Part shown: positions 16,687-56,081 of the stretch, one piece after another
Layout of the letters: each line of letters starts with the position of its first letter
How positions within the stretch are numbered: position 1 is the stretch's first letter
Assembly: GCA_018812485.1 (NCBI GenBank)
Contig: JAHJDO010000119.1
Span: 1 to 60,589 of the forward strand
Source of the DNA: a bacterium
GTDB lineage: Bacteria; JAHJDO01
DNA: 60,589 nt
Reading direction: 5' to 3'
The notes under the pieces: model-generated
Seen by the model: the letters and a program-made list of their open reading frames with translations, nothing else
The model's database searches: none
Told to the model about the DNA's origin: nothing
Program-made: the position numbers and the translations under genes

Positions 16687-17487
16687 CTACTGCAGAACTT
16701 TAGCTTTTTCTTCTTCTGAAACTACCAGTATGTATGGCTTAGAAGAAATAGGATTTTTTTCAACTACTACTGTCGTGTCGTAAACATCCTCAATAATCTG
16801 ATACGTTAATACTTCCTGTGGTGTGCCAACTTTGTGAATAAGTCCATTGTTAAGAAGAATTAATCTATCGCAATATTCGCTTGCCAGATTAAGATCATGC
16901 AAAACCACAATGACAGTAAGTCCATTTTGCCTATTTAACCTTCTTATAAGATCTAAAACTCTAATTTGATGTGTTATATCCAAATGAGCAGTAGGTTCAT
17001 CTAAAAGAAGTAGTCTCGGCTCCTGAGCAAGCGCGCGGGCAATAACTGCAAGCTGTCTCTCTCCACCGCTTAACTCTCCTATAAGCCTGTTCTTAAACCT
17101 GAGAGTATCCGTTAAAATCATCGCCTCTTCAGCAATCTCCTCATCGTGTTTACTTTCCAAAAACTGAAACTGCCTGCGGTAAGGAATCCTTCCCAGAAGA
17201 ACGAATTCTTCTATGGTCATATTATATCCTATCTCCGAACTCTGAGATACAAAAGCTACTTGTTTTGCGAATTCTCTAAATCCAAATTTTAATATATCCT
17301 TCCCTTCAAAAAGAACCTCTCCACTCCGAAGCTTAAGTATTTTAGTCATTGCCTTAAGCAGAGTTGTTTTCCCTGAGCCGTTGGGGCCAATTATACCCCA
17401 GAGACCTCTCTTTTGTATTCTGAAATTAATCCGGCTAAGTATAAATTTTGAGTCATACCCGCAGGTTAGATCTTTTACCTCAAGCAT
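16687..17487 (-). CDS. btuD: Corrinoid ABC transporter ATP-binding protein BtuD
   Basis: 266 residues. Walker A is G-P-N-G-S-G-K-T-T (~36-44), the signature is L-S-G-G-E-R-Q (~138) and Walker B is L-L-L-L-D-E-P-T (~158), followed by the switch V-V-L-H-D-L-N (~192). It belongs to the FecE/BtuD subfamily for iron siderophores, haem and cobalamin. The cobalamin assignment rests on the riboswitch, cobQ and DUF71 neighbours. Its ATG overlaps the btuC stop (TAATG). Confidence 0.92.
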   Translation of the reverse strand: MLEVKDLTCGYDSKFILSRINFRIQKRGLWGIIGPNGSGKTTLLKAMTKILKLRSGEVLFEGKDILKFGFREFAKQVAFVSQSSEIGYNMTIEEFVLLGRIPYRRQFQFLESKHDEEIAEEAMILTDTLRFKNRLIGELSGGERQLAVIARALAQEPRLLLLDEPTAHLDITHQIRVLDLIRRLNRQNGLTVIVVLHDLNLASEYCDRLILLNNGLIHKVGTPQEVLTYQIIEDVYDTTVVVEKNPISSKPYILVVSEEEKAKVLQ

Positions 17488-18506
17488 TATTGCTTGCCCC
17501 CTAATACAACTTGTTTTTTGCTAAGAAAATAGACAAAAATTGCTCCACCGATAATTCCTGTAATCACTCCGACAGGAAGTTCCAAAGGAGCAATAATTGT
17601 TCTGGCAAGGGTGTCGCAAAGTATAAGAAATGCCCCGCCCGAAAGAGCAGACGTAATAAGAAGTATACGGTGATCTCCTCCAACAAACATACGCATAAAA
17701 TGAGGCACAACCAATCCAACAAAGCCAATAACTCCCGCAACTGAAACCGCACAGCCTGTGAGTAAAGAGGCAAGTATAAACAGCAATCTCTTTGTCCTTT
17801 CTGTATTTATGCCTAAATGCAGAGCCTCTTCTTCCCCTAAAGCAAGCGCATTAAGCTCTGCACAAAATAAGTAAGATATGAATAAACCCAGGGCAGATAT
17901 TAAAACCACTGTCTTTATAAGAGCCAGATTCGGTTCTTCTAAAGAGCCCATTATCCAGAAAATAATTCCATGAAGATCCTCCGTGCGAGATATAGCCATA
18001 ATAAGCATAATTAGGGATGAGGAGATAAAACTTATCATTACTCCAGTAAGAAGAAGTCCCTGAATTTTTAATATGCCCTTTCTTGCGCTTAACGAGTAAA
18101 CAGCAAGAATTACAACGATCGCTCCCAGAAATCCGCTTGCCGGGATGGATAAGATTCCTCCTATTCTATTCAGTTTTAGGACGATATTTAAACACACACC
18201 CAAAGCTGCTCCGCCAGAAATACCCAGTGTATATGGCTCTACCAGAGGATTGCGAAACATGCCCTGAAGAAGTACCCCTGCAATGCTCAGAGCGCTCCCC
18301 ACTGCAAGACCCAGAATAATGCGGGGCAAACGTATGTCAAAAAGGATGCTGTATTCAGTAGTGCCTCTGCCTCCAAGAATTAAAGGTATGATTTTCTTAA
18401 AAGGTATACCAGCTGAGCCAACGCTCAATGAAAAAGCGCCTACTCCAAGAAGAATCCCGCATAAAATTAATATACAGATAAGCCAGCGAACTAATTTTCT
18501 ATTCAT
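17487..18506 (-). CDS. btuC: Corrinoid ABC transporter permease BtuC (FecCD family)
   Basis: 339 residues, about ten membrane helices. FecCD marks include R-L-P-R-I-I-L-G (~59-66), G-I-S-G-G-A-A-L-G (~97), the coupling region around A-L-G-E-E-E-A-L-H-L-G (~221-231), G-F-V-G-L-V-V-P-H (~262-270) and the C-terminal P-V-G-V-I-T. It moves the substrate across the inner membrane. It is coupled to btuF upstream and btuD downstream by overlapping stop/start codons. Confidence 0.92.
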   Translation of the reverse strand: MNRKLVRWLICILILCGILLGVGAFSLSVGSAGIPFKKIIPLILGGRGTTEYSILFDIRLPRIILGLAVGSALSIAGVLLQGMFRNPLVEPYTLGISGGAALGVCLNIVLKLNRIGGILSIPASGFLGAIVVILAVYSLSARKGILKIQGLLLTGVMISFISSSLIMLIMAISRTEDLHGIIFWIMGSLEEPNLALIKTVVLISALGLFISYLFCAELNALALGEEEALHLGINTERTKRLLFILASLLTGCAVSVAGVIGFVGLVVPHFMRMFVGGDHRILLITSALSGGAFLILCDTLARTIIAPLELPVGVITGIIGGAIFVYFLSKKQVVLGGKQ

Positions 18507-20132: not shown

Positions 20133-20786
20133 TTATTTTTTGGCTACAAGCCCTAAAAACCAGTTTTTTCCTCTCAATATTTTCTTGCCTTCTACAAACC
20201 TCACTGACTTCCTAAAAATAGGGCCGTCATAGACAAATGTATGATATTCTCCATCTTCTCCGCAGATGTCCACATTGCCCAAGTTCTCAATATCTTTCAA
20301 AAATTCCTTATCTAGGCTTCTTCCCAACCAATCTTCCCCCAGAAACTCAGAATTAATAGCAACAATAATTGACTTGAAACCAGTTTCTATAAATTCATCC
20401 ATAATTTTCTTTCTTTTTTTCTTCCATAACGGAAATAGCGGTTTGATCTGCAATTCTTTACAAACTCTTTCTATCCAATCCCTATGCTCCTGAACATCAA
20501 TATCTCCAAAAACACCAGCATGAACATCTCTATCTTTAAGAACAGTAATGGCTCTTTTGAATTCTTCCTCATAACTTTTCCCAACAGCCTTTTGAATGAT
20601 AGGAATTCCGATTGCTTCTGCTTGCACTCTCAACAAATCTGAGCTAACTCCATGCGAACGAGAATGCTTGCCCTCTTCTGATATCATATTTAACAAATAA
20701 GAAACCTCTATATCTTTACTTTGCTTTGCCTCATAACAGGAAAGGCAACTATCTTTCCCTCCGCTCCATGAAACAAATGCTTTCAC
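20133..20786 (-). CDS. DUF71/COG2102 ATP-pyrophosphatase, B12-salvage type
   Basis: 217 residues from a GTG at 20786, chosen because AGGA lies 6 bases upstream and because the GTG overlaps the stop of the small gene before it (GTGA). A TTG 45 bases further up is the alternative. The PP-loop S-W-S-G-G-K-D-S-C (~6-14) and the motif G-E-D-G-E-Y-H-T-F (~180-188) define the Dph6-like family, which activates a carboxylate with ATP for amidation. A bacterial branch has been predicted by comparative genomics to work in B12 salvage, and this context agrees. Bacteria do not make diphthamide. Confidence 0.85.
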   Translation of the reverse strand: MKAFVSWSGGKDSCLSCYEAKQSKDIEVSYLLNMISEEGKHSRSHGVSSDLLRVQAEAIGIPIIQKAVGKSYEEEFKRAITVLKDRDVHAGVFGDIDVQEHRDWIERVCKELQIKPLFPLWKKKRKKIMDEFIETGFKSIIVAINSEFLGEDWLGRSLDKEFLKDIENLGNVDICGEDGEYHTFVYDGPIFRKSVRFVEGKKILRGKNWFLGLVAKK

Positions 20787-20941
20787 TTTATTCCTCTTCG
20801 TTTTGACAACCTGCCCTGCACAAAATTCCAAATTAAACCAGCAAAAAGGATCACAATACTACTAGAATAAGAACATAATGGACATACCCCTGCACAACCT
20901 CCAATTTTCCCTTTAGTAAGAAGATTTATTAAAATACACAT
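20783..20941 (-). CDS. 52-residue Cys-rich membrane peptide, not previously listed
   Basis: A short gene filling the gap between the HgdC-like and DUF71 genes. It starts 6 bases after the HgdC stop and ends with TGA overlapping the DUF71 GTG start, a classic coupling arrangement. The peptide opens M-C-I-L-I-N-L-L, then has K-I-G-G-C-A-G-V-C-P-L-C (C-x3-C-P-x-C, residues 12-23). A hydrophobic helix I-V-I-L-F-A-G-L-I-W-N-F-V follows, then a basic tail R-L-S-K-R-R. The four cysteines suggest metal or Fe-S binding at the membrane. I recognise no family. Confidence 0.6.
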   Translation of the reverse strand: MCILINLLTKGKIGGCAGVCPLCSYSSSIVILFAGLIWNFVQGRLSKRRGIK

Positions 20942-20947
20942 ATTTCT

Positions 20948-21724
20948 TCAACCATTTTTCCGAGATAAAATTGCTGCAGCGCCAAATGCCACTGTGAATT
21001 GAGGTATTGGAAAGACCTTAATATCTCTCATAAGCTCCTCTTGCATAGCTGATACCAGTCCTCTGTTTGCTCCCGGCCCTCCATCCAGATAGATTTCTTC
21101 TTCTAAATATAAACTTCCCGCAAGATCCGAGATTCGTCTAGCCACTGATTTATGAAGCCCGGCTATAATATCATGAGTATTTGTCTCCACAGACAAGAGA
21201 GACATTATCTCACTTTCGGCAAAAACAGTGCAAGTACTATTGATATGAGCCGGCGACTGACTAAGAAGCCCTAACTTGCCAAATTCCCGAACAGGAATAT
21301 TCAGTATCTTTTCAGCCATTTCGAAGAATCGACCTGTTCCAGCCGCGCACTTATCGTTCATTTTAAAATCTATAACTTTTCCGTCAGAAGAGAGCTTAAT
21401 AACTTTAACATCCTGTCCACCTATATTGATAACAGTCCTTGCTGTCTTATCACTCAGGATATAAGCTCCCGCGGCATTAGCAGAAATCTCATCTACTATT
21501 CTTCCTGCATTAGGAAAAAGACGTTTGCCATAGCCTGTTGCTGCTATACCTGCAAGGTCTTTTTCCCGGATTGAAAGAGATTCTAATCCTTCTTCTAAAA
21601 GCTTTTCGGAAATCTCAACATACTGTGGCATTGTGGGAAGCGCTTTTGCCCAGAGTAAATTGCATTTATCAATAAAAACAACCTTTATAGCTGCTGTTCC
21701 TAAGTCAATCCCAGCTGTTATCAT
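20948..21724 (-). CDS. HgdC/BadF-type ASKHA ATPase, activator of the HgdB-like protein
   Basis: 258 residues from the ATG at 21724; AAAGGAG lies upstream, while the earlier in-frame start is a TTG in that site. The ASKHA fold shows A-G-I-D-L-G-T-A-A (~3-11), I-N-I-G-G-Q-D (~96) and D-G-G-P (~216). The bridging 4Fe-4S cluster ligands are in N-D-K-C-A-A-G-T-G-R (~119) and S-T-C-T-V-F-A-E-S-E (~158). In known systems the homodimer uses ATP to push one very low-potential electron into an Fe-S partner. The partner here is the adjacent HgdB-like gene. Confidence 0.9.
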   Translation of the reverse strand: MITAGIDLGTAAIKVVFIDKCNLLWAKALPTMPQYVEISEKLLEEGLESLSIREKDLAGIAATGYGKRLFPNAGRIVDEISANAAGAYILSDKTARTVINIGGQDVKVIKLSSDGKVIDFKMNDKCAAGTGRFFEMAEKILNIPVREFGKLGLLSQSPAHINSTCTVFAESEIMSLLSVETNTHDIIAGLHKSVARRISDLAGSLYLEEEIYLDGGPGANRGLVSAMQEELMRDIKVFPIPQFTVAFGAAAILSRKNG

Positions 21725-21741
21725 ATTTTTATGCGCTCCTT

Positions 21742-22983
21742 TCAACAGAGTGTTTCTCTGAAAGCTTCCAGCCTGATAAGAATATTTTGTCTGTCTTCGT
21801 GCGAATAATCCGTCTCTATTTTTATAAAGTGATACCCGTTTTCTTTAATCATTTTCTCAAAATAAAAACTTTCTATATCATATGGATGGCATCCTTTTAA
21901 AATATGATAGATTACACCTTTTATGTTATGGATGCGCATTGTATCCAGAATATTCTTTGCCCGTCTGTAGTTGTCTGCAAAACTTGGGCAGCTACAGGAA
22001 AGCTGGTATCTCTCTGCCAGCGTCTTGAGAATGCCATGCTCTGAATAATCATCACAAATCGTTGCGCCAGTCAAATTTCTCTCCGAAGTGCATAATTCAT
22101 CTCCAGCAATGAACATTCCCGCTTCCTCAATCAATTCCGAAATTTTTAGATTGGGAAAGAAAACAGGTGAGCCGGTAAGAAATACATCCGGATTATTTTT
22201 CTTTTTGGGCACGTTGTAATTTTTGAGAACCTGTTTAACCTTTTCCGTCCACGATTCAACGTTGTCCAGCATAAAAGCATTCGCTATAATAATGCTCCAT
22301 GTGCCTGAAATAGCCCCTCTCCGTCTTAATTCAATCAACTGCCCCAATACTTGCCACGCACTCATGTATTTTTTTATGGATGAGCTAAGTTGGCGGCGGT
22401 TAAGCCGCCTGCCTGCGTGAACTTCCAGCACTTTTTTTAGTTCATATACTTCTTGTATCCATCTTTCTCTACCTCTTTCACTTTCTTTGATATGCGGCAG
22501 TTCCATGATGTGTATGGAATTGGCTTTATCTCCTATTATTTCAGGCAGTTTGGCGTTCCAGTCGCAGGTGGTAGGTATAACTATTAAATCACAGAGTTTC
22601 TCCATGGATTCGTCAAGATAAAAGGAACTGAGACACGATTTTATAATAGGACATGTCAAAGACGGAACACGGCCTGAAGAAAGCCTTTGAATAGCCAACG
22701 ATCCGCTGCACAGCCTGAATGGATGAAACCCCAATGCGTCAAAGAGTTCCAGAGGAACCTGTACGCAGTAAAGACCAGCAAGAGGCTTATTAAATCTCTC
22801 CTTAAATTTTTGTGGATAAATACCCAGGGAAAGTATCTCAAGAAAATATTCAAACTCCGAAGAGAAATCATCCCTTTCCCTGAGAGACATAAGTTCAATA
22901 TCGTGCTCACACTGAATGTCTTTCTTTACCTTTCGCAGTAACCGCTCTTCCATATCTTTTCTGGAATAAGTTTCCCGATTCAT
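21742..22983 (-). CDS. HgdB/BcrC-like 2-hydroxyacyl-CoA dehydratase family Fe-S protein
   Basis: 413 residues from the ATG at 22983 (GGAAAG upstream); an in-frame start 30 bases earlier overlaps the previous gene. The fold matches the D-component family: G-F-H-P-F-R-L-C-S-G (~117-126), P-T-T-C-D-W-N (~170), S-C-S-C-P-S-F (~337) and L-K-G-C-H-P-Y-D-I-E-S (~370), giving cluster-binding cysteines. Only one such subunit is present, whereas dehydratases and benzoyl-CoA reductases use two. This, plus its B12 operon, argues against acyl-CoA chemistry and for reduction of another substrate, perhaps a corrinoid. Confidence 0.82.
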   Translation of the reverse strand: MNRETYSRKDMEERLLRKVKKDIQCEHDIELMSLRERDDFSSEFEYFLEILSLGIYPQKFKERFNKPLAGLYCVQVPLELFDALGFHPFRLCSGSLAIQRLSSGRVPSLTCPIIKSCLSSFYLDESMEKLCDLIVIPTTCDWNAKLPEIIGDKANSIHIMELPHIKESERGRERWIQEVYELKKVLEVHAGRRLNRRQLSSSIKKYMSAWQVLGQLIELRRRGAISGTWSIIIANAFMLDNVESWTEKVKQVLKNYNVPKKKNNPDVFLTGSPVFFPNLKISELIEEAGMFIAGDELCTSERNLTGATICDDYSEHGILKTLAERYQLSCSCPSFADNYRRAKNILDTMRIHNIKGVIYHILKGCHPYDIESFYFEKMIKENGYHFIKIETDYSHEDRQNILIRLEAFRETLC

Positions 22984-22987
22984 AGAA

Positions 22988-23929
22988 TTACTTTCCAAAC
23001 AATTTGCCGACATATTTTCTTGACGAAGAAAAAACCTTCCACTTTAAAAATTTAACAGAGAGAGCATTATCCTGCGGACAGGCTTCCACACACTTAAAAC
23101 ACTCCATACAGTCCTGAGTAAGCACGTTCTCTTTTTCTTTCTCTAAATGTACCTGTCTTATATTCATAGGACATACCCGCTGGCAGTTGCCGCAGCCAAT
23201 ACAGGCATCCACTTTCTTTTTAAGCTTAACGAATCCAATGTTGTCAAAAAGGCTAATAAGAGCAAGCAGAGGACAGAACATACAAAAAAAACGATCCTTA
23301 AAAATCATTCCTATTAAAATACTCCCTGCCAGAACCATAGACAATACAGTCATGGTAATAGTTACTGGATTGGTAAGGTCAATTGCAAACTTGGAAAAAT
23401 CTCCCACAAACAGAGGCATTAATGGCTTAGCCGGACATATCTGACAAAAGGGAAGTGTGAAATCTCCATGAAGACTAGCGTTCCCGATAAGGACAGGAAC
23501 AACTATAAGATATACAAGAAATATATACTTAATTGGTTTTAATTTATCTCTTAATCTCCATGAAAATTGCGACTCTCTAATCGAAAGTTTCTTTCTTAAC
23601 CAGGTAATCCAGTCCTGCAAAGTACCAAAGGGACATATCCATCCACACCAAGTCTTATTTAGCAGAATAGCCAGTATGAAAAACCCAAGAAACATCTTCA
23701 AAAATTTCAGACCATACATGCTAAAATAGAGATGGAAAGGCATTTCCATGCCACATTGAGAACGCTGAAGAACCATTAAATAGCAGGCTCCCAAGAATCT
23801 ACCTATATAAGGACAGGAAAATACAGGAAGAAAATGCCCTAACTTCAGGTTTATGCCGAGATAAGCAGCGTAGGTTAACAGAAAAAAACTTATGATCTGA
23901 ATCAAAAAACGCAGCCTGTAAACCCTCAT
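22988..23929 (-). CDS. NapH/CcoG-like membrane polyferredoxin
   Basis: 313 residues with about five membrane helices. It has the membrane-side cysteine motifs W-C-G-W-I-C-P-F-G (~93), C-Q-I-C-P (~161) and F-C-M-F-C-P-L (~213-219). The C-terminal domain has two 4Fe-4S binding runs, C-I-G-C-G-N-C-Q-R-V-C-P (~240-251) and C-M-E-C-F-K-C-V-E-A-C-P (~274-285). NapH-like proteins pass quinol electrons across the inner membrane. Here it could feed the HgdC/HgdB pair encoded next. Its ATG overlaps the preceding stop (ATGA). Confidence 0.88.
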   Translation of the reverse strand: MRVYRLRFLIQIISFFLLTYAAYLGINLKLGHFLPVFSCPYIGRFLGACYLMVLQRSQCGMEMPFHLYFSMYGLKFLKMFLGFFILAILLNKTWCGWICPFGTLQDWITWLRKKLSIRESQFSWRLRDKLKPIKYIFLVYLIVVPVLIGNASLHGDFTLPFCQICPAKPLMPLFVGDFSKFAIDLTNPVTITMTVLSMVLAGSILIGMIFKDRFFCMFCPLLALISLFDNIGFVKLKKKVDACIGCGNCQRVCPMNIRQVHLEKEKENVLTQDCMECFKCVEACPQDNALSVKFLKWKVFSSSRKYVGKLFGK

Positions 23930-24810
23930 ACCTGGAACTTTCTCCTTCTTACAGCAATAATAATAAATGTAACAGCTATTGTTCCAGCGAAAATACTGCC
24001 ACCAAGAATAAGATTTCTACTTCCAAATCTGGAACGATGGAATAAAAGCGTATATGAAGATTTATAAATTATATTTCCTTCCGTTTCCTCTGCTAATATT
24101 ACAGTCTGTTTGTATGCCGTTAATCCTTTTTGCCTTAATTTTTTATCATCAGACGATATATAAACAAAATTCCCTTCGTCATTGGTCTCTACATCTATAG
24201 GATTTTTATTCTCATCAGCTATATGAATCTTTTTTTTACATAGATGGTTTTTATCAAATAAAGGTGTCAATTTAACATGGTTTCCTGTCTGGGGCCAGCA
24301 TGAATGTTCCGGAGCAATACATATTTCAAACCGATCGCTAATCTCATCAGATAAAACAGGTTCTATCTCTTTCTCTTTGAATGGAGAATGTCCAAAGAGA
24401 AGGAAGGATGCCTTTGCAAGATAATTGCATTCTACTCCCTTAAAATTTCTTTTTCCCTTGACCAGGACTGTAACACAATTTGTTTTCAATGAATTGATTC
24501 TAACAAAGGATGTTTTTTTATCTTCTTCTATATCCGCTCCATAGAAGATATTTTCTCCATTCTCATTTTTCTTATTCAATGTATAAAATACTTTAATATC
24601 TTTCAGTCCTGAGACATCTCCCTTCCTATCAGGGAATCTTCCATAATAAATAGACAAAGGCTGTGTCACAGATCCATTCTTCTCTTTAATCTGCTTCCCA
24701 TATTCAACCCAGAGATAATCATTTTTTGAAGAGAGAGTATAAGCGCTTGTATTGCCTATAAGAAAAAACAATAAGACAAAAATAATAATTGGAAGTAATT
24801 TCTTTTCCAT
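23926..24810 (-). CDS. Exported, membrane-anchored DUF4198-like protein
   Basis: 294 residues. A signal peptide (I-I-I-F-V-L-L-F-F-L-I-G-N-T-S-A-Y) is followed by an extracytoplasmic beta-rich domain. A K-L-T-P-L strand with I-D-V-E-T-N-D-E-G-N-F (~206-216) resembles the Ig-like half of DUF4198 proteins, a family linked in other bacteria to nickel and cobalt uptake loci. A C-terminal membrane helix (I-F-A-G-T-I-A-V-T-F-I-I-I-A) and R-R-R-K tail follow. The family assignment is tentative. Position between the PilZ and NapH genes suggests a periplasmic part of the same system. Confidence 0.6.
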   Translation of the reverse strand: MEKKLLPIIIFVLLFFLIGNTSAYTLSSKNDYLWVEYGKQIKEKNGSVTQPLSIYYGRFPDRKGDVSGLKDIKVFYTLNKKNENGENIFYGADIEEDKKTSFVRINSLKTNCVTVLVKGKRNFKGVECNYLAKASFLLFGHSPFKEKEIEPVLSDEISDRFEICIAPEHSCWPQTGNHVKLTPLFDKNHLCKKKIHIADENKNPIDVETNDEGNFVYISSDDKKLRQKGLTAYKQTVILAEETEGNIIYKSSYTLLFHRSRFGSRNLILGGSIFAGTIAVTFIIIAVRRRKFQV

Positions 24811-25424
24811 TATTTCTTCCGCCAGACAACTTCAAGATCATAATAAGAAATTTGCTTATGGCATTTTGGACAGATTACTATTCTCTCTTCATTCATTTCT
24901 TCAGGGATATCCAGAAATGCATATTCAGTGCTGTAAGATGTATGAACGCACATTGGACATTTTAGTTTTTCTGTGGCGTATTTGCTGACAGTCCTTGCAT
25001 GAGCTATATCCCCTATCTTTGGAGCGCTTAAAATACCAACCAATATTATCGCCAGTACAGCAACTATTGTTGGCAGTAAAAAACTAGGAACTCTTCTCCA
25101 TACAGGATTTTCAAAACGCTGATATAATTTTTTAAAGAATTCTGTGGATTTGCTATCTCCCTGAAGCAGACGAATACCCGCTTTACAGCCAAAACCTGCT
25201 GTTCGCTCAGTCCATCTGACCTCTCCCTTAAATCGCATAGGTTTCTTTGCCTTATGAGTATATATTCTAAGATTTACCTTTTCCCCGATGTGGAGAAAGT
25301 TTCTCAACCGTATTCCTATACCGCGTTTGGAAAAATCCTGCAGAGTAGCAACCTCTTTACCCAATTCTACTCTAGTCTTTTCCAGAGAAAATCTTTTATG
25401 TCTTCTTTTATTTTCACTACCCAT
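24810..25424 (-). CDS. PilZ domain - membrane helix - zinc ribbon protein
   Basis: 204 residues in three parts. Residues 1-100 are a PilZ domain with R-R-H-K-R-F (~6-11) and D-F-S-K-R-G-I-G-I (~29), the two parts of a c-di-GMP site. Residues ~112-135 are a membrane helix (F-L-L-P-T-I-V-A-V-L-A-I-I-L-V-G-I-L). The C-terminal part has C-P-M-C (~157) and C-P-K-C-H (~185), a zinc ribbon. I know of no characterised protein with this layout. It follows the pseudopilin gene by 5 bases. Confidence 0.75.
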   Translation of the reverse strand: MGSENKRRHKRFSLEKTRVELGKEVATLQDFSKRGIGIRLRNFLHIGEKVNLRIYTHKAKKPMRFKGEVRWTERTAGFGCKAGIRLLQGDSKSTEFFKKLYQRFENPVWRRVPSFLLPTIVAVLAIILVGILSAPKIGDIAHARTVSKYATEKLKCPMCVHTSYSTEYAFLDIPEEMNEERIVICPKCHKQISYYDLEVVWRKK

Positions 25425-25429
25425 GATTA

Positions 25430-26257
25430 TTAATCCGGTTCATGATGTCCATAGAGTTTATTTGCAACTGCTGGGTCAGTGCTATCCTCCCCAATCCAGC
25501 CTATATTAACTGATTCATAATCCCTGCCATACATAGTTCGCGAATAGGACATCCTCTCGCTGGTGATATGCCCATCACACCATACAACATTTGCCAAGCC
25601 GTTATGCCTGAAATGCATAGATGGAGAAAGTTGATTCCAACTAACACCACCTATAGTTTTGTAATATGGGGCGCCCAAATCATAATTTTCCACAATCGCT
25701 CCGCTTCTAATTCCTGCAGTATCAGATAAAATAACAGTTTCGGAAGGATTCTTTATGTCCGAATCTTTATGTTGTTTGTAGAACCACTGACTACTTCCTA
25801 GATTACCTCCAACAAACTGTTTATTGTATCCGTAACCTCCACTTGCAGGTTGATATGCTGTTTTACTAAACTGTTTAAAATTGGGGCATGTTTTAATTTC
25901 ACCCATTTTTAGATAGGAATAGATAGGACTACCTGTAAAATCAAGCTCTCCTTCTGCTGTGTACTGTGCTCCTGTCCAGAATATTTGTGGTCCGTTTGGA
26001 TAGGGATCTCCCTTACTCAAACCGCCGACATAGTTAGTACAATCAGAACAGAGCGGATAATATCCGTCATTATCATTTTTGTACATCTCTATTGCCAGAA
26101 AAATCTCTTTCAAGTTAGAGATACATACTGTCTGCCTTCCTTTTTCCCTTGCCTTTGAAAGCGCAGGAAGAAGGATTGATGAGAGCATGGCTATTATTGC
26201 TATCACAACCAAAAGCTCTAAAAGTGTAAACCCTTTTTTGTTCTTTCTTGTTACCAT
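25430..26257 (-). CDS. Pseudopilin with H-X9-DG domain, first gene after B12 riboswitch
   Basis: 275 residues. The type IV pilin-like N-terminus is K-K-G-F-T-L-L-E-L-L-V-V-I-A-I-I, with prepilin peptidase cleavage expected after G9. The C-terminal signature H-N-G-L-A-N-V-V-W-C-D-G (~213-224) is H-X9-DG. Such proteins are numerous in Planctomycetes, Lentisphaerae and Omnitrophota and form surface or periplasmic filaments of unknown function. Being the first gene behind the cobalamin riboswitch and terminator, its expression should rise when B12 is scarce. A GGGGAAAAG ribosome site precedes the ATG. Confidence 0.88.
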   Translation of the reverse strand: MVTRKNKKGFTLLELLVVIAIIAMLSSILLPALSKAREKGRQTVCISNLKEIFLAIEMYKNDNDGYYPLCSDCTNYVGGLSKGDPYPNGPQIFWTGAQYTAEGELDFTGSPIYSYLKMGEIKTCPNFKQFSKTAYQPASGGYGYNKQFVGGNLGSSQWFYKQHKDSDIKNPSETVILSDTAGIRSGAIVENYDLGAPYYKTIGGVSWNQLSPSMHFRHNGLANVVWCDGHITSERMSYSRTMYGRDYESVNIGWIGEDSTDPAVANKLYGHHEPD

Positions 26258-26287: not shown

Positions 26288-26322
26288 AAAAATAAAAAAG
26301 CCCAATCTTCGCAGATTGAGCT
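26288..26322 (-). terminator. Rho-independent terminator of the cobalamin riboswitch
   Basis: Minus strand 10-bp stem AGCTCAATCT / AGATTGGGCT with a GCGA loop (26299-26322), then a U-rich run. It lies between the aptamer and the pseudopilin start, the expected expression platform for transcriptional control. Confidence 0.85.
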
Positions 26323-26334
26323 TTCCATTATAAA

Positions 26335-26462
26335 AACTTCCCCTTTCCACGAAGGTACTTACCTAAACAGGCAATGGTCCGGGCTTTCCCAAAATTTTCG
26401 GGAATTACCGTTGCGGGACAGCGCCCAGAATCTCACTGGGACTTCCTTTGCCTCTCCGGCTA
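26335..26462 (-). promoter_or_regulatory. Cobalamin (adenosylcobalamin-type) riboswitch aptamer
   Basis: On the minus strand the conserved elements appear in order: GCCGGAGAGGCAAAGGAAGT, a CCCAG...CTGGG hairpin, GCGCTGTCCCGCAACGGTAA, and the B12 box AAAGCCCGGACCATTGCCTG. This is the canonical cobalamin aptamer core. Ligand binding should favour the terminator just downstream and shut off the pseudopilin-to-cobQ block. Confidence 0.92.
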
Positions 26463-26499
26463 AAAACTAATTTTCAAAAGAACGTTCTAAACTTGCTGA

Positions 26500-26527
26500 A
26501 TTATAACACTATTAATTCATATGTCTA
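26500..26527 (-). promoter_or_regulatory. Promoter of the cobalamin riboswitch transcript
   Basis: Minus strand TAGACA (26522-26527), 16 bases, TATAAT (26500-26505). It lies between the feoB stop and the aptamer. Predicted transcription start is near 26493. Confidence 0.7.
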
Positions 26528-26545: not shown

Positions 26546-28252
26546 TTAAAGAATAAGATTAAGCATTCCTCCTACTATCAATACAGCCGCAATCATAATT
26601 GCTGATGCTTTGAGCATATCTACAAATCCCAACTCCTTTACCAATGTACTGAAAGTAGCTATACATGGAAAATACATTGTCAAGACTATACTGGCTATTA
26701 TCAGCTGCTTCAAATTAAGGGCTAAAGGCGCTAACATTCCAACAGCCACATCTTTACGCAGGAAACCAACTAATAGCGCTCCTATTGCCTCTTTTGGCAG
26801 TCCAAAAATTCCAGAAATAACAGGAGCAGTATATTTCCCCACGAATTGGATTATGCCCAATGTATAAAGTATGTTTACTATAAATACTCCCAAAAGCACA
26901 AAAGGGATCGCTTCTTTAATAAACCACTTCGTGCGAATCCATGTTTTTTTCAGCAGATGTGTTAGGTAAGGTCTTCGGTAAGGTGGTATTTCCATAAATA
27001 TCTCCGGTGACGTTCCGCTTACCAGGTGAGCCATTAAGATTCCCAGTACCAGCCAGACCACAAAGAGTGTTCCGTAAACAACGCCTAGTCCATATACCAT
27101 GTGCTTGCCCATCAGTCCCACCACCATGGCTTGCAAAGCCGCACATGGTACTGCAATAGATAACAGAGTCACCGCGATAAATCGCTCTCTTCTGGTAGCT
27201 AATATCCTGGTGGAGAGAATGCCGGGAACATTGCAGCCCAATCCCAGCATCATAGGTATTATTGCCAGACCATGTATACCTAAACGGTGCATCAGTCCGT
27301 CCACCAGAACAGCTAATCTGGGCAGATAGCCACAATCTTCTAAAACTGACAACATTACATAAAAAGCAAAAACATAAGGCAATACTGCTCCTATTGGAAC
27401 AAACAGACCTGTAGTCAATAGTCCAAAGGACTGACCATAATCTATTTTACCCTCTATCAGCTTACCAATTAAGATATCGTGGATAATTCCATCAGATCCC
27501 AATATTGCAGACAATTTCAGTAATAATGGTGTCCATAATTTTTCAAAAACAGGTTCAAATACATAACCTATAAGTCCTTCCCCTATAAATCTTATAATTT
27601 TGAAAGTGAAGAATAATATCACTAGGGCTAGTGGAATTCCGAAGACAGGAATCGTTGAAATATCTCCTAATCTTTCCATGAAGGTATGGTCATGGTGACT
27701 TAATTCCTGAACTTGACCTATAATATCTCCTATAACATGCCATTTTTCTTTATCTTCGTAATCAAATTTAGAAAATTTTGCCTCTTTCAGTCTCTCAGTC
27801 AGTTTTTTGATTCCCTCGCCTGTAACTGCGCAGATAGGGACACAGGGAACACCTAACATCTCTTCCAGCTTTTGAAAATCAATGGTAATCCCTTTATGCT
27901 TGGTTTCATCCCAGAAGTTAAGCGCTATTATCATAGGTTTTTTCTTTTTTATTAATTGCATTGTGAGGTTAAGACTTTTTTCCAAATTGGTGGCATCAAC
28001 AACATTAATAACTATATCTCCCCCCTTAAGCATTCTAACTGCAACTTCTTCTGCTTTATCACCAGCATCTAAGGAATAAGTTCCCGGCACATCTATTACC
28101 ATCATCTCTTCTTCATCTATCCGCATTTTACCCTGTGTAAAATCAACTGTTGTACCTGGATAGTTGGAGATAATAACATTTGCACCCGTTAGTCTATTGA
28201 AAACTACACTCTTACCGGTGTTGGGATTTCCCATAAGCAATATTTTTTTCAT
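26546..28252 (-). CDS. feoB: Ferrous iron (or other divalent metal) transporter FeoB, short form
   Basis: 568 residues from the ATG at 28252, which overlaps the feoA stop (ATGA). The N-terminal G domain has G-N-P-N-T-G-K-S (~8-15), D-V-P-G-T-Y-S-L (~55) and N-F-W-D (~114). The core follows with Gate-like repeats (G-C-N-V-P-G-I and P-C-A-A-L-Q) and about eight membrane helices. It is shorter than the ~770-residue E. coli protein. Fe(II) is the standard substrate; its coupling to cobT makes cobalt worth considering. Confidence 0.92.
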   Translation of the reverse strand: MKKILLMGNPNTGKSVVFNRLTGANVIISNYPGTTVDFTQGKMRIDEEEMMVIDVPGTYSLDAGDKAEEVAVRMLKGGDIVINVVDATNLEKSLNLTMQLIKKKKPMIIALNFWDETKHKGITIDFQKLEEMLGVPCVPICAVTGEGIKKLTERLKEAKFSKFDYEDKEKWHVIGDIIGQVQELSHHDHTFMERLGDISTIPVFGIPLALVILFFTFKIIRFIGEGLIGYVFEPVFEKLWTPLLLKLSAILGSDGIIHDILIGKLIEGKIDYGQSFGLLTTGLFVPIGAVLPYVFAFYVMLSVLEDCGYLPRLAVLVDGLMHRLGIHGLAIIPMMLGLGCNVPGILSTRILATRRERFIAVTLLSIAVPCAALQAMVVGLMGKHMVYGLGVVYGTLFVVWLVLGILMAHLVSGTSPEIFMEIPPYRRPYLTHLLKKTWIRTKWFIKEAIPFVLLGVFIVNILYTLGIIQFVGKYTAPVISGIFGLPKEAIGALLVGFLRKDVAVGMLAPLALNLKQLIIASIVLTMYFPCIATFSTLVKELGFVDMLKASAIMIAAVLIVGGMLNLIL

Positions 28253-28491
28253 GGTTGCTCTATCTCCACCCATATTTTCTGAGCCATACCAAAACCTACA
28301 GCAGCCCTGGTATTCCCATGGCTGACAATAACAGGTCCTCTCATTAATTGCCTGCTTACTTTCTTAATTGTTTTGCCAACTCTTAAACCAAGCGCATCAA
28401 GCCTGCAATTCATCCCGGCTCCACCGTCTATTTGAACTATTTTCCCATTTTGACCAGACCTCATATTAACTAAAGAAATCAGTCCATTCAT
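28249..28491 (-). CDS. feoA: FeoA-like SH3-domain protein
   Basis: 80 residues. The FeoA pattern is present: [12 protein letters not shown] (~13-24), [14 protein letters not shown] (~30-43), then the strand [15 protein letters not shown] (~52). FeoA binds FeoB from the cytoplasmic side and supports transport. Its ATG overlaps the cobT stop and its stop overlaps the feoB ATG, so the three are translationally coupled. Confidence 0.9.
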
Positions 28492-29558
28492 TTTACTTCC
28501 TCCGAAACCCCTGCATCTTCAAAAGTTGCCATCTCATTCAATATCTTTATTCCAGCTTCTATTACACTGATTCCAAGTGCTGCTCCTGTGCCTTCGCCCA
28601 GTCTCATGTTCAAATCCAAAATTGGATTAAGATTCATTCTACTGAGCATGTACTGATGTCCTGCTTCCACAGATTTGTGCGCTGCAAAAATATAATCCTT
28701 TACCTGAGGGCATAGTTCGTATGCAATAAGAGCGCCCGCTGTAGATATTAGTCCATCAATTACAACAGGAGTATTTGATGCCGCTGCCCCGAGCACACAG
28801 CCGCATAATCCACCAATTTCAAATCCGCCAACCTTTGCTAATACATCAATAGGATCTTCAGGATTCGGCTTATTAATATCCAGTGCCTTTTTTATAACTC
28901 TAACTTTATTCTCAAATGCTTCATCTGAAATTCCTGTTCCGCGGCCCGTGACTTTCTCAACTTCAATCCCTGAAAAGGCTGCAATCACTGCGCTGCTTGG
29001 TGTAGTATTTCCTATTCCCATATCCCCTGTTCCCAATATGTCAATCCCGTGTTTTTTCCTTTCCATAAATACTTCTATCCCATTCTCTATAGATTTTACT
29101 GCTTCCTCTCTTGTCATTGCAGTACCTTTTGTCATATTCTTAGTGCCAAACCCCACCTTTTTATCCATGAAATTTCGGATTTCGGATTTCGGATTTCGGA
29201 TTTCGGCAGCCACTCCCATATCAATGACAATTACCTTTGCTCCAACATGTCTTGCCAGAACATTAATACCTGCTCCTTCTCTTAAAAAATTATAGACCAT
29301 TTGAGGCGTAACTTCCTGAGGGAACGCGCTAACCCCTTCCTCCACGACTCCATGATCTCCAGCCATTGTAAAAATCACCTTATTCCCGAATTCAGGTTTG
29401 AGACTTCCTGTGATTCCTACAATCTGTTTTGCAAACTCCTCTAATCTGCCCAGACTCCCTCTTGGCTTGGTAAGACTATCAAGCCTTCTCTGTGCTTCAT
29501 CCATAAGCTTTGAATCTAATGGCTTAATTCTACTAATTACCTGTTTGATTTTGTCCAT
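28488..29558 (-). CDS. cobT: Nicotinate-nucleotide:dimethylbenzimidazole phosphoribosyltransferase CobT
   Basis: 356 residues. It makes alpha-ribazole phosphate, the lower ligand precursor of cobalamin. Family marks: the N-terminal [10 protein letters not shown] (~32-41), A-G-D-H-G-V (~66), G-I-G-N-T-T (~170) and the C-terminal [11 protein letters not shown] (~322), which holds the catalytic Glu. After I-D-M-G-V-A the reading frame carries an in-frame insert ([12 protein letters not shown]) from a 7-base tandem repeat, probably in a loop. cbiB lies 11 bases upstream. Confidence 0.95.
29172..29206 (-). repeat. Five tandem copies of CCGAAAT inside cobT
   Basis: Coding strand CCGAAAT repeated five times without change (35 bases). 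Because 3 x 7 = 21, it stays open in frame and encodes repeated E-I-R-N-P-K-S. The same CCGAAAT-like words occur in the inverted repeat at 52751-52873, so both may come from one repeat family. Confidence 0.85.
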
Positions 29559-29569
29559 GATTTACTCCC

Positions 29570-30520
29570 CTATTTTATTAACAATTTTATACAGCACCCA
29601 AAAACTATTGACAATGCAGAACATGCATACATTATCCTTATAGAATCTTTTATATCTGAAGGTTCCAAGGACTTTTCAGCATCGCCTATACAGGGTTTTT
29701 CAACCAGTTTTCCCTCATAATAATTTGCCCCTCCAAGTCTCACTCCAATCGCTCCTGCAAATCCTGCTTCAGGAATACCGCTGTTTGGACTTGCATGCTT
29801 CTTCCTGTCCCTTAAAATTACCCTAATAGAATCCCTGAATCCCTTTCCTGAAATAAACGAAGCTATTGGGATTAACAGCATTGATATTCGCGCAGGTATA
29901 AAATTAGCTATATCATCCAGTTTAGCTGATGCCCATCCAATATCTATATATCTCTTGTTCTTGTAGCCAACCATTGAATCAAGTGTATTTGTTGCCTTGT
30001 ACGCCATAGATAAAGGCGCTCCTCCAATAAATGCAAAGAAAACAGGGGAAATAATTCCATCTACTGTGTTCTCTGCCACAGTTTCCACACTGGCTCTTAT
30101 AATTTCTCTCTCATTTAAGCCTTCAGTATCCCTTCCAACAATCCTTGCCAGATTCTCCCTTGCTAAAGACAAGTTATGAGTCTTTAGAGATGTATACACT
30201 CTGTTTGTTTCAATTGAGAGGTCTTTTACTGACAATGAGACAAAAATAAAATAAATACTTACTATTACTCCAAATATCCAATGCAAGCGCGCTGCAAGCC
30301 CTATCAATATAAAAACAAAAAAATATGTTCCAACTACAACCAGAAACACCAGAATTATTCCAGCAACTTTTTTATTAGTTATAACTTTTGTTATACCTTT
30401 TTCTAATATCTCTATTACCTTGCCTATTAAGACAATTGGATGAGGAAGCCATTCAGGATCCCCTATAATCAAATCCAGAATATATGCAAAAATTATTTGA
30501 ATTGTAATGAAATATGTCAT
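29570..30520 (-). CDS. cbiB: Adenosylcobinamide-phosphate synthase CbiB
   Basis: 316 residues, about four to five membrane helices. It joins aminopropanol phosphate to cobyric acid. Family marks: D-L-I-I-G-D-P-E-W-L-P-H-P (~16-28), N-T-V-D-G-I-I-S-P (~150-158), N-T-L-D-S-M-V-G-Y-K-N (~181-191) and P-N-S-G-I-P-E-A-G-F-A-G-A-I-G-V-R-L-G-G (~244-263). Its start overlaps the cobD stop (ATGA). Confidence 0.95.
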   Translation of the reverse strand: MTYFITIQIIFAYILDLIIGDPEWLPHPIVLIGKVIEILEKGITKVITNKKVAGIILVFLVVVGTYFFVFILIGLAARLHWIFGVIVSIYFIFVSLSVKDLSIETNRVYTSLKTHNLSLARENLARIVGRDTEGLNEREIIRASVETVAENTVDGIISPVFFAFIGGAPLSMAYKATNTLDSMVGYKNKRYIDIGWASAKLDDIANFIPARISMLLIPIASFISGKGFRDSIRVILRDRKKHASPNSGIPEAGFAGAIGVRLGGANYYEGKLVEKPCIGDAEKSLEPSDIKDSIRIMYACSALSIVFGCCIKLLIK

Positions 30521-31584
30521 CCGAATATATTCCTAAGAGCCTTGATCAAGAGCTTATTCTCCGTCCTTTTCTTAACTGCCACTCTCACAAACGAGCTGTC
30601 CAGCCCCCTGAAATTGCCGCAATTTCTTACAACAATCTTGTCCTTTATGAGAAGTTCCTCTAACTCTTCAACCTTAAAACGAATACTAGACGTAAATAAA
30701 ATAAAGTTTGTACATGAGTCAAATCCCTTTATGGATTTTATCTTTTTTAATTCGGAAGACAGAAAATTTCGTTCCTTAATCAAAATTCTTTTGCTTTTCT
30801 CAATATATGCTGAGTCAGCTAATAAATAAGAACCAGCAATTTGAGCAAACGTATTTACAGACCATGTCGGCTGGAAATTTTTTATCTTTGCGCTTAGGCG
30901 AGCAGATGCCACTCCGAAGCCAAGCCTTAATCCCGGAATCCCAAGAAACTTTGTCAATGACCTTATAACAAAAAGATTTTGCTGCCTTTGAGCTCTCGTA
31001 ACTAAACTCTCTTCCTCAACCAAATCTATAAATGCCTCATCAATTACTACAAAGACATTATTCTGCTTGGCAAGATCCAGCACATTATAAAGTGTATTGC
31101 GGGATATTTTCTGACCTGTTGGATTGTTCGGATTACAGATAAAAAGGAGTTCTACATTTTTAATAATATTTTTCAGATTTTGTGCTTTTAATTTGAACTC
31201 TTCTTTTTCTTCTAATTTCATAAATTTGATATTACAGCCAACATTCGATAAGGCTCTTTCGTATTCTGAAAACGCAGGAATAATAATAGCTGCCTTTTTG
31301 GGACGCAGCAAGTAGCATATAAGGTATATTAGTTCTGTTGCGCCATTAGACGGGACCAAGCATGTTTTCTTGATGTTATACCTATCTGAGATCGCATTTA
31401 TCAACTGGTTACAATCAGGATCGGGATACATGCGGATTTTATTAAAATCTTCTTTCATAATCCGCTTCAGTCCATCTGGAAAGCAAAGGGGATTTATATT
31501 TGCGCTAAAGTCAATTATTTCATCAAGCGCTATATTGTGCTTTTTACTAATTCGGTATAAGTTGCCGCCGTGCTGAGGTTTCAA
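30517..31584 (-). CDS. cobD: L-threonine-O-3-phosphate decarboxylase CobD
   Basis: 355 residues, PLP-dependent fold type I. It turns threonine phosphate into aminopropanol phosphate for CbiB. H-G-G-N (~5), F-S-A-N-I-N-P (~26), Y-P-D-P-D (~53), N-G-A-T-E (~79), C-N-P-N-N-P-T-G (~150) and the PLP lysine in R-S-L-T-K (~211) separate it from histidinol-phosphate aminotransferases, its nearest look-alike. Neighbours pduX and cbiB confirm the assignment. It overlaps pduX by 38 bases. Confidence 0.93.
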   Translation of the reverse strand: MKPQHGGNLYRISKKHNIALDEIIDFSANINPLCFPDGLKRIMKEDFNKIRMYPDPDCNQLINAISDRYNIKKTCLVPSNGATELIYLICYLLRPKKAAIIIPAFSEYERALSNVGCNIKFMKLEEKEEFKLKAQNLKNIIKNVELLFICNPNNPTGQKISRNTLYNVLDLAKQNNVFVVIDEAFIDLVEEESLVTRAQRQQNLFVIRSLTKFLGIPGLRLGFGVASARLSAKIKNFQPTWSVNTFAQIAGSYLLADSAYIEKSKRILIKERNFLSSELKKIKSIKGFDSCTNFILFTSSIRFKVEELEELLIKDKIVVRNCGNFRGLDSSFVRVAVKKRTENKLLIKALRNIFG

Positions 31585-32452
31585 CTAGTTCTCCTCCCCC
31601 ATTTACAAGTTTAGTAATATAAAAGGTGAACTTTGCCTTAAATCTTTTTTCTATTTTGCAAACAACTGTCTGCATATCAACCTGACCTGGGAAAAACAAA
31701 ATACCAACAACTGTTCCACTATGGGCAGTATTAATTCCGCAAGCTCCTAATTCATCTGCAATTTTCATAAGATCCATAAGCTCTCTTTTATACAGAATTT
31801 TCTGATTGAATTCAGCACTCATTGTTGCGCCTTTTCCAAGCATATGTATGTCTTTTTTTCTGATTCCGTCTTTAACAAGCTCATAAGCCTCTCTTAACTC
31901 TAAAGCATTATTGAATTTCTTCAATATTTCATTACGTCTGGAATTAAACTCAAGAGTATTGACTCTTCCGCCTAAATCAATAATTAATATATCCATTTCA
32001 GGAGGAGGGCCAATATATTCCACTATAGAACCGCCTACATGATCAAAAACAACTATATCTTCAAACATCAAACCATCTGTTGGCTCAATAGAAACTGCTA
32101 TTCTGGCAATTTCCAAAGGGGTTATATCTCTGCCTAAAGCCTTCGCTGTAGCAATGCAGGTTCCAATTATATCTGAGGTACTGCTGCTCATTCCCTTTTC
32201 CTGTGGAATTTCAGAATTGATATATATTTGCCCACCACATTTATGCATACCAAAATAATCCAGAACCTTTCTCATAGCCTCGCAGGATTTATACTTATCG
32301 TCCGGAGCCTTTATTCTGGAATTTGATTCATATATATTGATCTCAACATATGAATAGACATTTACAGGGCATGTTATAAGAAGATGCGTCCCGTCAAGCA
32401 CACCCTGCCACAATTCTCCACATGAACCAGGAACTTTTACTACTGTCTTCAT
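31547..32452 (-). CDS. pduX: L-threonine kinase PduX (GHMP family)
   Basis: 301 residues. It phosphorylates L-threonine to feed CobD. GHMP motifs: the N-terminal P-G-S-C-G-E-L-W-Q-G (~8-17), the ATP loop P-Q-E-K-G-M-S-S-S-T-S-D (~88-99) and the C-terminal G-A-C-G-I-N-T-A-H-S-G-T (~238-249). The start lies 7 bases after the nadB stop, so nadB and the cob genes may share a transcript. Confidence 0.9.
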   Translation of the reverse strand: MKTVVKVPGSCGELWQGVLDGTHLLITCPVNVYSYVEINIYESNSRIKAPDDKYKSCEAMRKVLDYFGMHKCGGQIYINSEIPQEKGMSSSTSDIIGTCIATAKALGRDITPLEIARIAVSIEPTDGLMFEDIVVFDHVGGSIVEYIGPPPEMDILIIDLGGRVNTLEFNSRRNEILKKFNNALELREAYELVKDGIRKKDIHMLGKGATMSAEFNQKILYKRELMDLMKIADELGACGINTAHSGTVVGILFFPGQVDMQTVVCKIEKRFKAKFTFYITKLVNGGGELVETSARRQLIPN

Positions 32453-32459
32453 ATATCAC

Positions 32460-34079
32460 TTATAAAATAGCAATCTCACAGTCCTTTTTTAAAGATAACT
32501 CTATATGAGTATTTCGCCACTTTTCATCATTCTGCATTGGATAATCTTTGCGATAGTGGACACCTCTAGTCTCCTTCCTGATAAGGGCTGCTTTCTGAAT
32601 AAGCCCTGCTACAAGAAGCATATTTTGAAATTCCCAATCCCTGATATCTGAAAATTCTTTCCCCATTACATATGAAGACCAAAAATTAATTTCTTTCTGA
32701 GCTGCCAAAAGACCTGCCCCATCTCTCTCAATGCCCACATACCTTGTCATTAAACTTTTCAGGGAAGCCTTGAGATCTCCTATATCCAGTTTTTTTGTGC
32801 CAATATGATCCAATACATTGCTTATATCCGGAGTTCTCTCAAATCGCTTTCCACAATCTATATCCTTGCCTGCAGATTGCCCTGCTCTATAACCAAAAAC
32901 AAGCCCTTCAAGGAGAGAATTGCTCGCCAGTCTGTTAGCGCCATGAACTCCTGAAGAAGCTGTCTCTCCGCACGCATATAGATTTTGAATATTAGTTTTC
33001 CCATTTTCATCTATTTTAATTCCTCCTATCATATAATGAGCAGTAGGCCGAACAGGTATAAAATCCTTTTTAATATCTATGCCAAAAGAAGAACAAACCT
33101 CCATTATATTTGGGAAACGATTTTTTACTAATTTATTACTTAAGTGCGTAAGGTCTAAATAGACGCGTGTATCAGCCGTCTCTCTCATTTCTTTCAGAAT
33201 TGATCTTGACGTCACGTCACGAGGAGCCAGCTCTCCATCCTTATGGTACTTAAACATAAATCTTTCACCATGCTTGTTTCTCAAGACTCCGCCTTCACCT
33301 CTAACTGCCTCAGAGATTAATGTGCGGGACAGACCTGCTACATATAAAGTAGTAGGATGAAACTGAACAAATTCCATATCTATAAGCTTAGCGCCTGCTC
33401 TATAAGCAAGCGCCATACCGCATCCTGTAGCAACAGGGGAATTTGTTGTCTCACGATAAACCTGCCCAATTCCACCTGTAGCTAATATTACTTTCTGCGC
33501 ATAGACTATCTTTTTCTCATTATTTTTCACATTAACAACAGCACCAAAACAAGTTCGGTCTCTATGAAGTAAATCTATGACAAAAGCATACTCCAGAATC
33601 TTAATCTTAGTGTTCTGTTTGACTTTTGATATCAGCGCTCTTTCTAATTCCGCACCTGTAGCATCGCCTTTTGCATGAATCACTCTTCGTATGCTATGAC
33701 CCGCTTCCCGGGTAAAAGAGAGCTGATCTCCCTGCCTGTCAAATTCTGTTCCCCATTGGATCAATTCCTTGATACGAGCGGGTCCTTCTTCTACTATTAT
33801 CTTGACCGCCTTCTCGTTGCATAACCCGCACCCAACTCTTAATGTATCTTCTATATGCCCCTCAGGCGAATCATCCTTTGATAACGCCACAGCTATTCCG
33901 CCCTGAGCTTTTTGAGTGTTGCTTTCGCTGAGTTTATCCTTGGTTATTATAGTTACCTCTCCACATTTTGCCGCCTGAATAGCAGCAGAGAGTCCGGCTA
34001 CCCCACTTCCAATAATTAAAATATCAGTTTTGATAGACGGCAGGTTTTTTGTGTTAAAGGAGGTGAGGAATTTATTCAT
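32460..34079 (-). CDS. nadB: L-aspartate oxidase NadB
   Basis: About 539 residues from the ATG at 34079; two in-frame starts 9 and 36 bases upstream are possible. It makes iminoaspartate for NAD synthesis using FAD; fumarate can replace oxygen as acceptor in anaerobes. FAD motif G-S-G-V-A-G-L-S-A-A (~24), T-Q-K-A-Q-G-G-I-A (~56), H-P-T-T-L-Y (~243), R-G-E-G-G (~264) and the late G-V-H-G-A-N-R-L-A-S-N-S-L-L-E (~383-397) are all present. nadA and nadC are not in the window. Confidence 0.93.
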   Translation of the reverse strand: MNKFLTSFNTKNLPSIKTDILIIGSGVAGLSAAIQAAKCGEVTIITKDKLSESNTQKAQGGIAVALSKDDSPEGHIEDTLRVGCGLCNEKAVKIIVEEGPARIKELIQWGTEFDRQGDQLSFTREAGHSIRRVIHAKGDATGAELERALISKVKQNTKIKILEYAFVIDLLHRDRTCFGAVVNVKNNEKKIVYAQKVILATGGIGQVYRETTNSPVATGCGMALAYRAGAKLIDMEFVQFHPTTLYVAGLSRTLISEAVRGEGGVLRNKHGERFMFKYHKDGELAPRDVTSRSILKEMRETADTRVYLDLTHLSNKLVKNRFPNIMEVCSSFGIDIKKDFIPVRPTAHYMIGGIKIDENGKTNIQNLYACGETASSGVHGANRLASNSLLEGLVFGYRAGQSAGKDIDCGKRFERTPDISNVLDHIGTKKLDIGDLKASLKSLMTRYVGIERDGAGLLAAQKEINFWSSYVMGKEFSDIRDWEFQNMLLVAGLIQKAALIRKETRGVHYRKDYPMQNDEKWRNTHIELSLKKDCEIAIL

Positions 34080-34133
34080 AAGCCGCATTCTACATCGCTT
34101 ATAAAACAGTGTCAAATAGGAAGATAATTACAG

Positions 34134-35703: not shown

Positions 35704-35782
35704 TCTCTTTCCCTCCCAAAATCCCTCGTTTTTATATTGATTCTTAAACAATAATTTATGCCCTGATATTACCATGGTTTAT

Positions 35783-55909: not shown

Positions 55910-55925
55910 AAACTAGCTCAAACTC

Positions 55926-56076
55926 TATCTTCTTCCATCCAGACTATACTGTCGGCCACGGTCTCTCACCGTATCAATCCTGTCCCTGCACAATTACAGA
56001 AACCAGAACTTGCGGGCTTTCTTCAACAACAAAAAGATTTACCGCCGGTAGGGATTCTCACCCTGCCCCGAAGACA
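55926..56076 (-). promoter_or_regulatory. FMN riboswitch (RFN element) upstream of ribD
   Basis: On the minus strand the conserved blocks occur in order: GGGCAGGGTGAGAATCCCTA, CCGGCGGTAAA, AAGCCCGC, GGTGAGA...CCG, and GCCGACAGTATAGTCTGGAT ending GGAAGAAGAT. This is a complete aptamer. FMN binding should promote the terminator and lower expression of the rib genes and whatever is co-transcribed with them. Confidence 0.97.
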
Positions 56077-56081
56077 TGTTT

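What the first reader, a model, noticed from the sequence alone, without database searches (positions are those of the whole stretch)
20783..20941. Hidden 52-residue Cys-rich membrane peptide coupled to DUF71
Seen: a frame that exactly fills the gap, starts 6 bases after the HgdC stop and shares GTGA with the DUF71 start. It has C-x3-C-P-x-C followed by a membrane helix and basic tail. Inference: a small metal- or Fe-S-binding membrane subunit of the redox module. It moves the DUF71 start to GTG 20786.
Basis: seen in the sequence. Interest (0 to 1): 0.72.

Follow-up and report, generated by a model that had tools for sequence, protein, structure and literature searches.

The report
Tiny membrane protein in B12-uptake operon
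A real, previously unannotated 52-residue membrane protein with conserved cysteines lies inside an operon switched by vitamin B12, so it probably helps import B12-like cofactors or metals rather than being a subunit tied to its neighbour DUF71.

Summary
The 52-codon frame at 20941-20783 (-) exists as described and is almost certainly a gene. It fills the only hole in a 13-gene gapless run. It has clear homologues in two genomes of another phylum (40% identity over 47 residues, E 2.5e-8, shuffle z = 10); there it has a good ribosome site, and DNA identity between the two genomes runs through it and stops at its stop codon. Three cysteines are invariant: C2, C16, C20.

The DUF71/redox-subunit reading is not supported. 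In the same genus, DUF71 (87% identical) sits in a B12-uptake operon with no peptide and no HgdC. The foreign homologues end a TonB-receptor/TPR run without HgdC or DUF71. The decisive find is an AdoCbl (B12) riboswitch at 26473-26329 (-), with a near-consensus promoter and a terminator. It heads the run containing NapH-like/HGD-D/HgdC, the peptide, DUF71-B12, BtuFCD and CobQ.

Best reading: a small N-out/C-in single-span accessory of corrinoid/metal import whose thiols handle cobalt or iron. The thiol chemistry is inferred. The family is rare and matches nothing in Pfam or NCBIfam; function is untested.

The parts
20783..20941 (-). 52-aa Cys-bearing single-span membrane protein (the finding); invariant C2, C16, C20; helix about 21-48
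   Evidence: Homologues in G119 and G289; shuffle test z = 10; AF2 helix 21-48 at low confidence, mean pLDDT 61
26500..26527 (-). Near-consensus promoter TAGACA-16-TATAAT with TG extension (consensus match only)
   Evidence: Best of 31 promoter-like sites in the region, 11 of 12
26329..26473 (-). AdoCbl (B12) riboswitch aptamer RF01482 heading the run of genes
   Evidence: 50.5 bits, gathering 50, E 4.7e-6; full-length alignment
26295..26326 (-). Intrinsic terminator directly after the riboswitch
   Evidence: 14-pair stem and T run, longest stem of the terminator-like sites in the region
25430..26257 (-). First gene: N-methyl pilin-like/DUF1559 protein
   Evidence: Pfam PF07963, PF07596
24810..25424 (-). 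PilZ-domain protein with Cys pairs near its C-terminus
   Evidence: PF07238
23926..24810 (-). 294-aa protein with N- and C-terminal hydrophobic segments, no family match
22988..23929 (-). NapH-like membrane 4Fe-4S ferredoxin
   Evidence: PF12801, PF13237; best NCBIfam matches NapH, below cut-off
21742..23013 (-). HGD-D/double-cubane-type reductase
   Evidence: PF06050 6.6e-75; NF040772 245 bits, below its cut-off of 350
20948..21724 (-). HgdC-type ASKHA activase
   Evidence: TIGR00241 225 bits, above cut-off
20133..20786 (-). DUF71 (PF01902), B12 subgroup, start GTG 20786
   Evidence: GEYHT motif as in PMC3541065
19351..20118 (-). Radical SAM protein
   Evidence: PF04055
18506..19375 (-). BtuF-like substrate-binding protein
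   Evidence: PF01497; NCBIfam BtuF match below cut-off
16687..18506 (-). BtuC-like (17487-18506) and BtuD-like (16687-17487) ABC transporter
   Evidence: PF01032, PF00005
15127..16671 (-). CobQ (cobyric acid synthase-like), last gene of the run
   Evidence: PF07685, PF01656

Best explanation
The frame is a real gene for a small inner-membrane protein: an exposed N-terminal segment with C2, C16 and C20, one transmembrane helix, and a basic cytoplasmic tail. It is the seventh gene of a 13-gene run that starts with an AdoCbl riboswitch and holds corrinoid import (BtuFCD), corrinoid processing (DUF71-B12, CobQ) and an ATP-driven low-potential reductase (NapH-like, HGD-D, HgdC). It most likely is an accessory of corrinoid/metal import, placing two or three thiols at the periplasmic face of the membrane to bind or exchange the metal (cobalt of corrinoid here, possibly iron or corrinoid in G119) during hand-over. 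Shown: gene reality, conservation of three Cys, riboswitch and gapless gene run. Inferred: single transcript, topology, location of the thiols, metal or corrinoid ligation.
For: Homologues with conserved Cys. DNA identity between G119 and G289 runs at about 91% through TonB receptor, TPR protein and peptide, then ends at its stop codon, with third-codon-position excess of changes 3:1:6. Riboswitch, promoter and terminator; 13 genes with spacings of -26 to +17 nt. Hydrophobic segment 19-37 with charge 2/5, 0/4 and 0/6 on the N/C sides, hence N-out by the positive-inside rule. In both lineages the gene stands in a TonB- or Btu-type uptake context. Precedent: BtuM holds corrin cobalt by a cysteine near the periplasmic surface (PMC6072759).
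Against: No B12 riboswitch was found in front of the G119 operon, so its substrate may be iron or heme. The window run has no TonB receptor. Four of five genus members lack a detectable peptide, so it is dispensable for B12 uptake; only G001's B12 operon was inspected. Only three sequences are known, two nearly identical. The AF2 model has low confidence.
Confidence: 0.5

Rival explanations
1. It is a small membrane subunit of the NapH-like/HGD-D/HgdC electron chain: the cysteines form an Fe-S or redox relay from the membrane ferredoxin to the activase.
For: It starts 6 nt after hgdC and lies in the same run of genes; HGD-D is absent at E 1e-40 from the listed genus mates, as is the peptide.
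Against: G119 carries the peptide with no NapH, HGD-D or HgdC match in 18 kb around it. G231 has NapH-HGD-D-HgdC with a ModA-like gene next and no peptide. Three conserved Cys on the probable outer side do not make a standard Fe-S site for cytoplasmic partners.
Confidence: 0.2
2. [quoted passage not shown]
For: feoB genes lie nearby in both lineages: window 26546-28273, and FeoA-FeoA-FeoB about 7.5 kb upstream in G119. Size and membrane-plus-Cys design resemble PF12669 (PMC8749426).
Against: No PF12669 match even at E 10. In the window feoB ends before the promoter and riboswitch, outside this run.
Confidence: 0.15
3. It is a precursor peptide modified by the nearby radical SAM enzyme (RiPP-like).
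For: A radical SAM gene follows it in G119 directly and in the window after DUF71.
Against: The two radical SAM proteins are only 26% identical over 98 aa and only one has a SPASM match. In G289 the DNA after the peptide is unrelated and carries no radical SAM gene in the 419 nt held. Helix plus basic tail is unlike a leader-core precursor.
Confidence: 0.07
4. It is a short-lived or selfish small membrane peptide (toxin-like or regulatory) without a role in uptake.
For: Hydrophobic helix and basic tail; patchy distribution across two phyla.
Against: Conserved Cys motif; tight placement inside operons; no antitoxin-like partner was seen beside it.
Confidence: 0.08

Closest known systems
[quoted passage not shown]
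   Same: About 50 aa, one membrane helix, Cys motif, metal-uptake neighbourhood
   Different: No HMM match at E 10; here the Cys lie before the helix and include C2; not in the feoB transcription unit of the window
BtuM (B12 membrane transporter)
   Same: Small membrane protein of B12 uptake with an essential Cys near the periplasmic face (PMC6072759)
   Different: BtuM is about 22 kDa with six helices and one invariant Cys; no sequence match here
DUF71-B12 subgroup operons (BtuCDF-DUF71-cbiB)
   Same: The window run is such a B12-salvage operon; 75 of 102 surveyed genes of that subgroup adjoin B12 transporter genes (PMC3541065)
   Different: The carried NapH-HGD-D-HgdC genes and the 52-aa protein are not in the passages of that paper read here
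2-hydroxyacyl-CoA dehydratase/double-cubane reductase with HgdC activase
   Same: Neighbouring HGD-D and HgdC belong to these families
   Different: The peptide is not part of these systems in the other loci inspected here

Membership tests
[quoted passage not shown]
   No family at E up to 10 for any of three members
[quoted passage not shown]
   C2, C16, C20 conserved; C23 only in the window copy; no fourth Cys
[quoted passage not shown]
   feoB lies before the riboswitch in the window and about 7.5 kb away in G119
AdoCbl-riboswitch corrinoid-uptake operon (membership of the locus) | Riboswitch above the gathering score, terminator, downstream btu genes on the same strand without gaps | tested here: met
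   50.5 bits against 50, terminator and promoter, spacings -26 to +17 nt, BtuFCD
DUF71-B12 subgroup (neighbour) | E188 of Dph6 replaced by His before the conserved Thr; adjacency to B12 transport genes | tested here: met
   GEYHT in the window sequence compared with the rule in PMC3541065; by eye, no structural alignment was run
BtuM | About 22 kDa, six helices, invariant Cys | tested here: not met
   52 aa, one helix
Subunit of the NapH/HGD-D/HgdC redox module | Co-occurrence of the peptide with the module | tested here: not met
   Peptide without module in G119; module without peptide in G231
Fe-S binding protein | Cluster bound by the Cys | not testable with these tools
   Needs purified protein and spectroscopy

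The most novel reading that the evidence does not exclude
The run encodes an ATP-driven corrinoid reduction and import machine: NapH-like ferredoxin, HGD-D double-cubane protein and HgdC deliver very low-potential electrons to freshly imported corrinoid (Co(II) to Co(I)), and the 52-aa protein holds the corrinoid cobalt by cysteine at the membrane during hand-over. That would be a new use of the dehydratase-type activase system in B12 salvage and a new class of cobalt-thiolate membrane protein.
Probability: 0.15. Interest if true: 0.8.

Novelty: new variant of a known kind. Interest (0 to 1): 0.42.

Why it matters
It adds a small protein family, matching no Pfam or NCBIfam model, to B12/metal uptake, a field where accessory proteins are still being found (for example the btuK, btuJ, btuL and btuX genes of Bacteroides, PMC12751083). 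More broadly it places a dehydratase-type ATP-driven reductase under a B12 riboswitch, which suggests a testable electron source for corrinoid reduction in anaerobes.

Tried and rejected
A genome-wide DNA pattern scan for GGCxGxCPxC returned mainly chance matches: none of the 119 fetched loci had the HgdC/HGD-D/DUF71 context; this was a poor use of the single scan. Weak tblastn or profile hits in many genomes were inspected, and none kept the MC, GCxGVC and helix layout; several crossed stop codons. Viral and plasmid collections gave nothing. The PDB profile search gave only weak single-helix matches, best E 0.53. The RiPP idea was dropped after the synteny break in G289. A B12 riboswitch in front of the G119 operon was sought and not found, even at relaxed threshold. 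A first attempt to hand in this report failed for missing fields.

Full report
Observation. The frame lies at 20941-20783 on the minus strand, 52 codons, starting 6 nt after the hgdC stop and overlapping a DUF71 GTG start by four bases. Without the frame, the hgdC-DUF71 gap would be 161 nt, in a run of 13 genes whose other spacings lie between -26 and +17 nt. Shuffled gaps give such a filling ATG frame in about 1% of cases. The codon score is positive in frame and about -0.39 in the other two sense frames, though one antisense frame is also weakly positive.

Homologues. A search of 289 genomes found one strong relative, G119, with E 2.5e-8 and 40% identity over 47 residues. G289 of the same genus as G119 has it too; G256 of that genus does not. 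The similarity of the window and G119 proteins is 10 standard deviations above shuffles that keep the three segments apart, and no shuffle of 20,000 reached it. In G119 a strong AGGAGG site precedes the ATG. Between G119 and G289 the DNA stays about 91% identical through TonB receptor, TPR protein and peptide, and ends exactly at the peptide stop; the ten base changes in the frame fall 3:1:6 by codon position. Invariant residues include M1, C2, G11, K12, G15, C16, G18, V19, C20 and I37-W38-N39.

Distribution. Apart from the window genome, G119 and G289, no convincing member was found among four other genus members, 386 genomes sampled mostly across the domain (overlapping), 388 genomes of one phylum reached through a PVC-group record and 341 of one reached through an Elusimicrobiales record. 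The profile rests on two or three sequences, so distant members can be missed.

Where the neighbours belong. In G001, same genus, DUF71 is 87% identical but stands in ExbB-ExbD-TonB-TonB receptor-DUF71-BtuF, with an AdoCbl riboswitch-like element upstream at 46.6 bits, just under the gathering score of 50. The window DUF71 has GEYHT, with the His that marks the DUF71-B12 subgroup, of which 75 of 102 surveyed genes adjoin B12 transporter genes (PMC3541065). DUF71 is therefore a B12-salvage gene. NapH-HGD-D-HgdC recurs in G231 next to TonB/ExbBD-like genes and an ABC transporter whose binding protein looks ModA-like by eye, but without the peptide. G119 has the peptide and no match to that module within 18 kb.

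Regulation. An AdoCbl riboswitch (RF01482, 50.5 bits, gathering 50) lies at 26473-26329 on the minus strand. It follows the best promoter-like site of the region (11 of 12, extended -10) and precedes a terminator-like site with the longest stem. feoB ends upstream of the promoter. The run then reads pilin-like/DUF1559, PilZ, a 294-aa protein, NapH-like, HGD-D, HgdC, the peptide, DUF71, radical SAM, BtuF, BtuC, BtuD and CobQ. The simplest inference is that the peptide is made when B12 is scarce.

Mechanism. The hydrophobic stretch 19-37 is followed by a clearly more basic end (net +5, +4 and +6 in the three proteins, against +2, 0 and 0 before it). AF2 gives one helix at 21-48 with low confidence. 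By the positive-inside rule the N-terminus with its cysteines faces out. In both lineages the gene stands in a Btu- or TonB-type uptake context. I therefore commit to an accessory of corrinoid/metal import whose thiols contact the metal. BtuM shows that a cysteine near the periplasmic face can ligate corrin cobalt in a B12 importer (PMC6072759). That ligation here is inference, not a result.

Novelty. No Pfam or NCBIfam family matches any of the three members at E 10, and the PDB profile search gave nothing convincing. [quoted passage not shown] The more provocative element may be the neighbouring ATP-driven reductase under a B12 riboswitch: activases of this type lower electron potentials to about -600 to -800 mV, and ATP-dependent corrinoid reduction is known from other activators (PMC6739815). 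Whether HGD-D here reduces corrinoid is untested.

Noticed in passing
window 20948-23929: A NapH-like/HGD-D/HgdC reductase set lies in an AdoCbl-riboswitch gene run; a candidate low-potential corrinoid reductase. The same trio occurs in G231 (L217:6465-10092).
   Followed up: partly
window 24810-26257: The first genes after the riboswitch are a pilin-like DUF1559 protein and a PilZ-domain protein with Cys pairs near its C-terminus, unusual company for a B12-uptake operon.
   Followed up: no
window 26546-37240: Upstream genes on the same strand: FeoB, CobT-type phosphoribosyltransferase, CbiB/CobD, an aminotransferase, a GHMP kinase and an NadB-like enzyme; a second block with corrinoid genes.
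   Followed up: partly
window 55923-56079 (-): FMN riboswitch, 106.5 bits.
   Followed up: no
L150:6731-7585 (-): Radical SAM/SPASM protein next to the G119 homologue; best NCBIfam match is the tungsten cofactor oxidoreductase maturase TIGR04317, below cut-off.
   Followed up: partly
L150:2828-17905: In G119 a long same-strand run with FeoA-FeoA-FeoB, two TonB receptors, HPr, DUF2292, methyltransferase, TPR, the peptide, radical SAM, DUF3450, MotA/ExbB-type proteins, ExbD-like and TonB-like proteins.
   Followed up: partly
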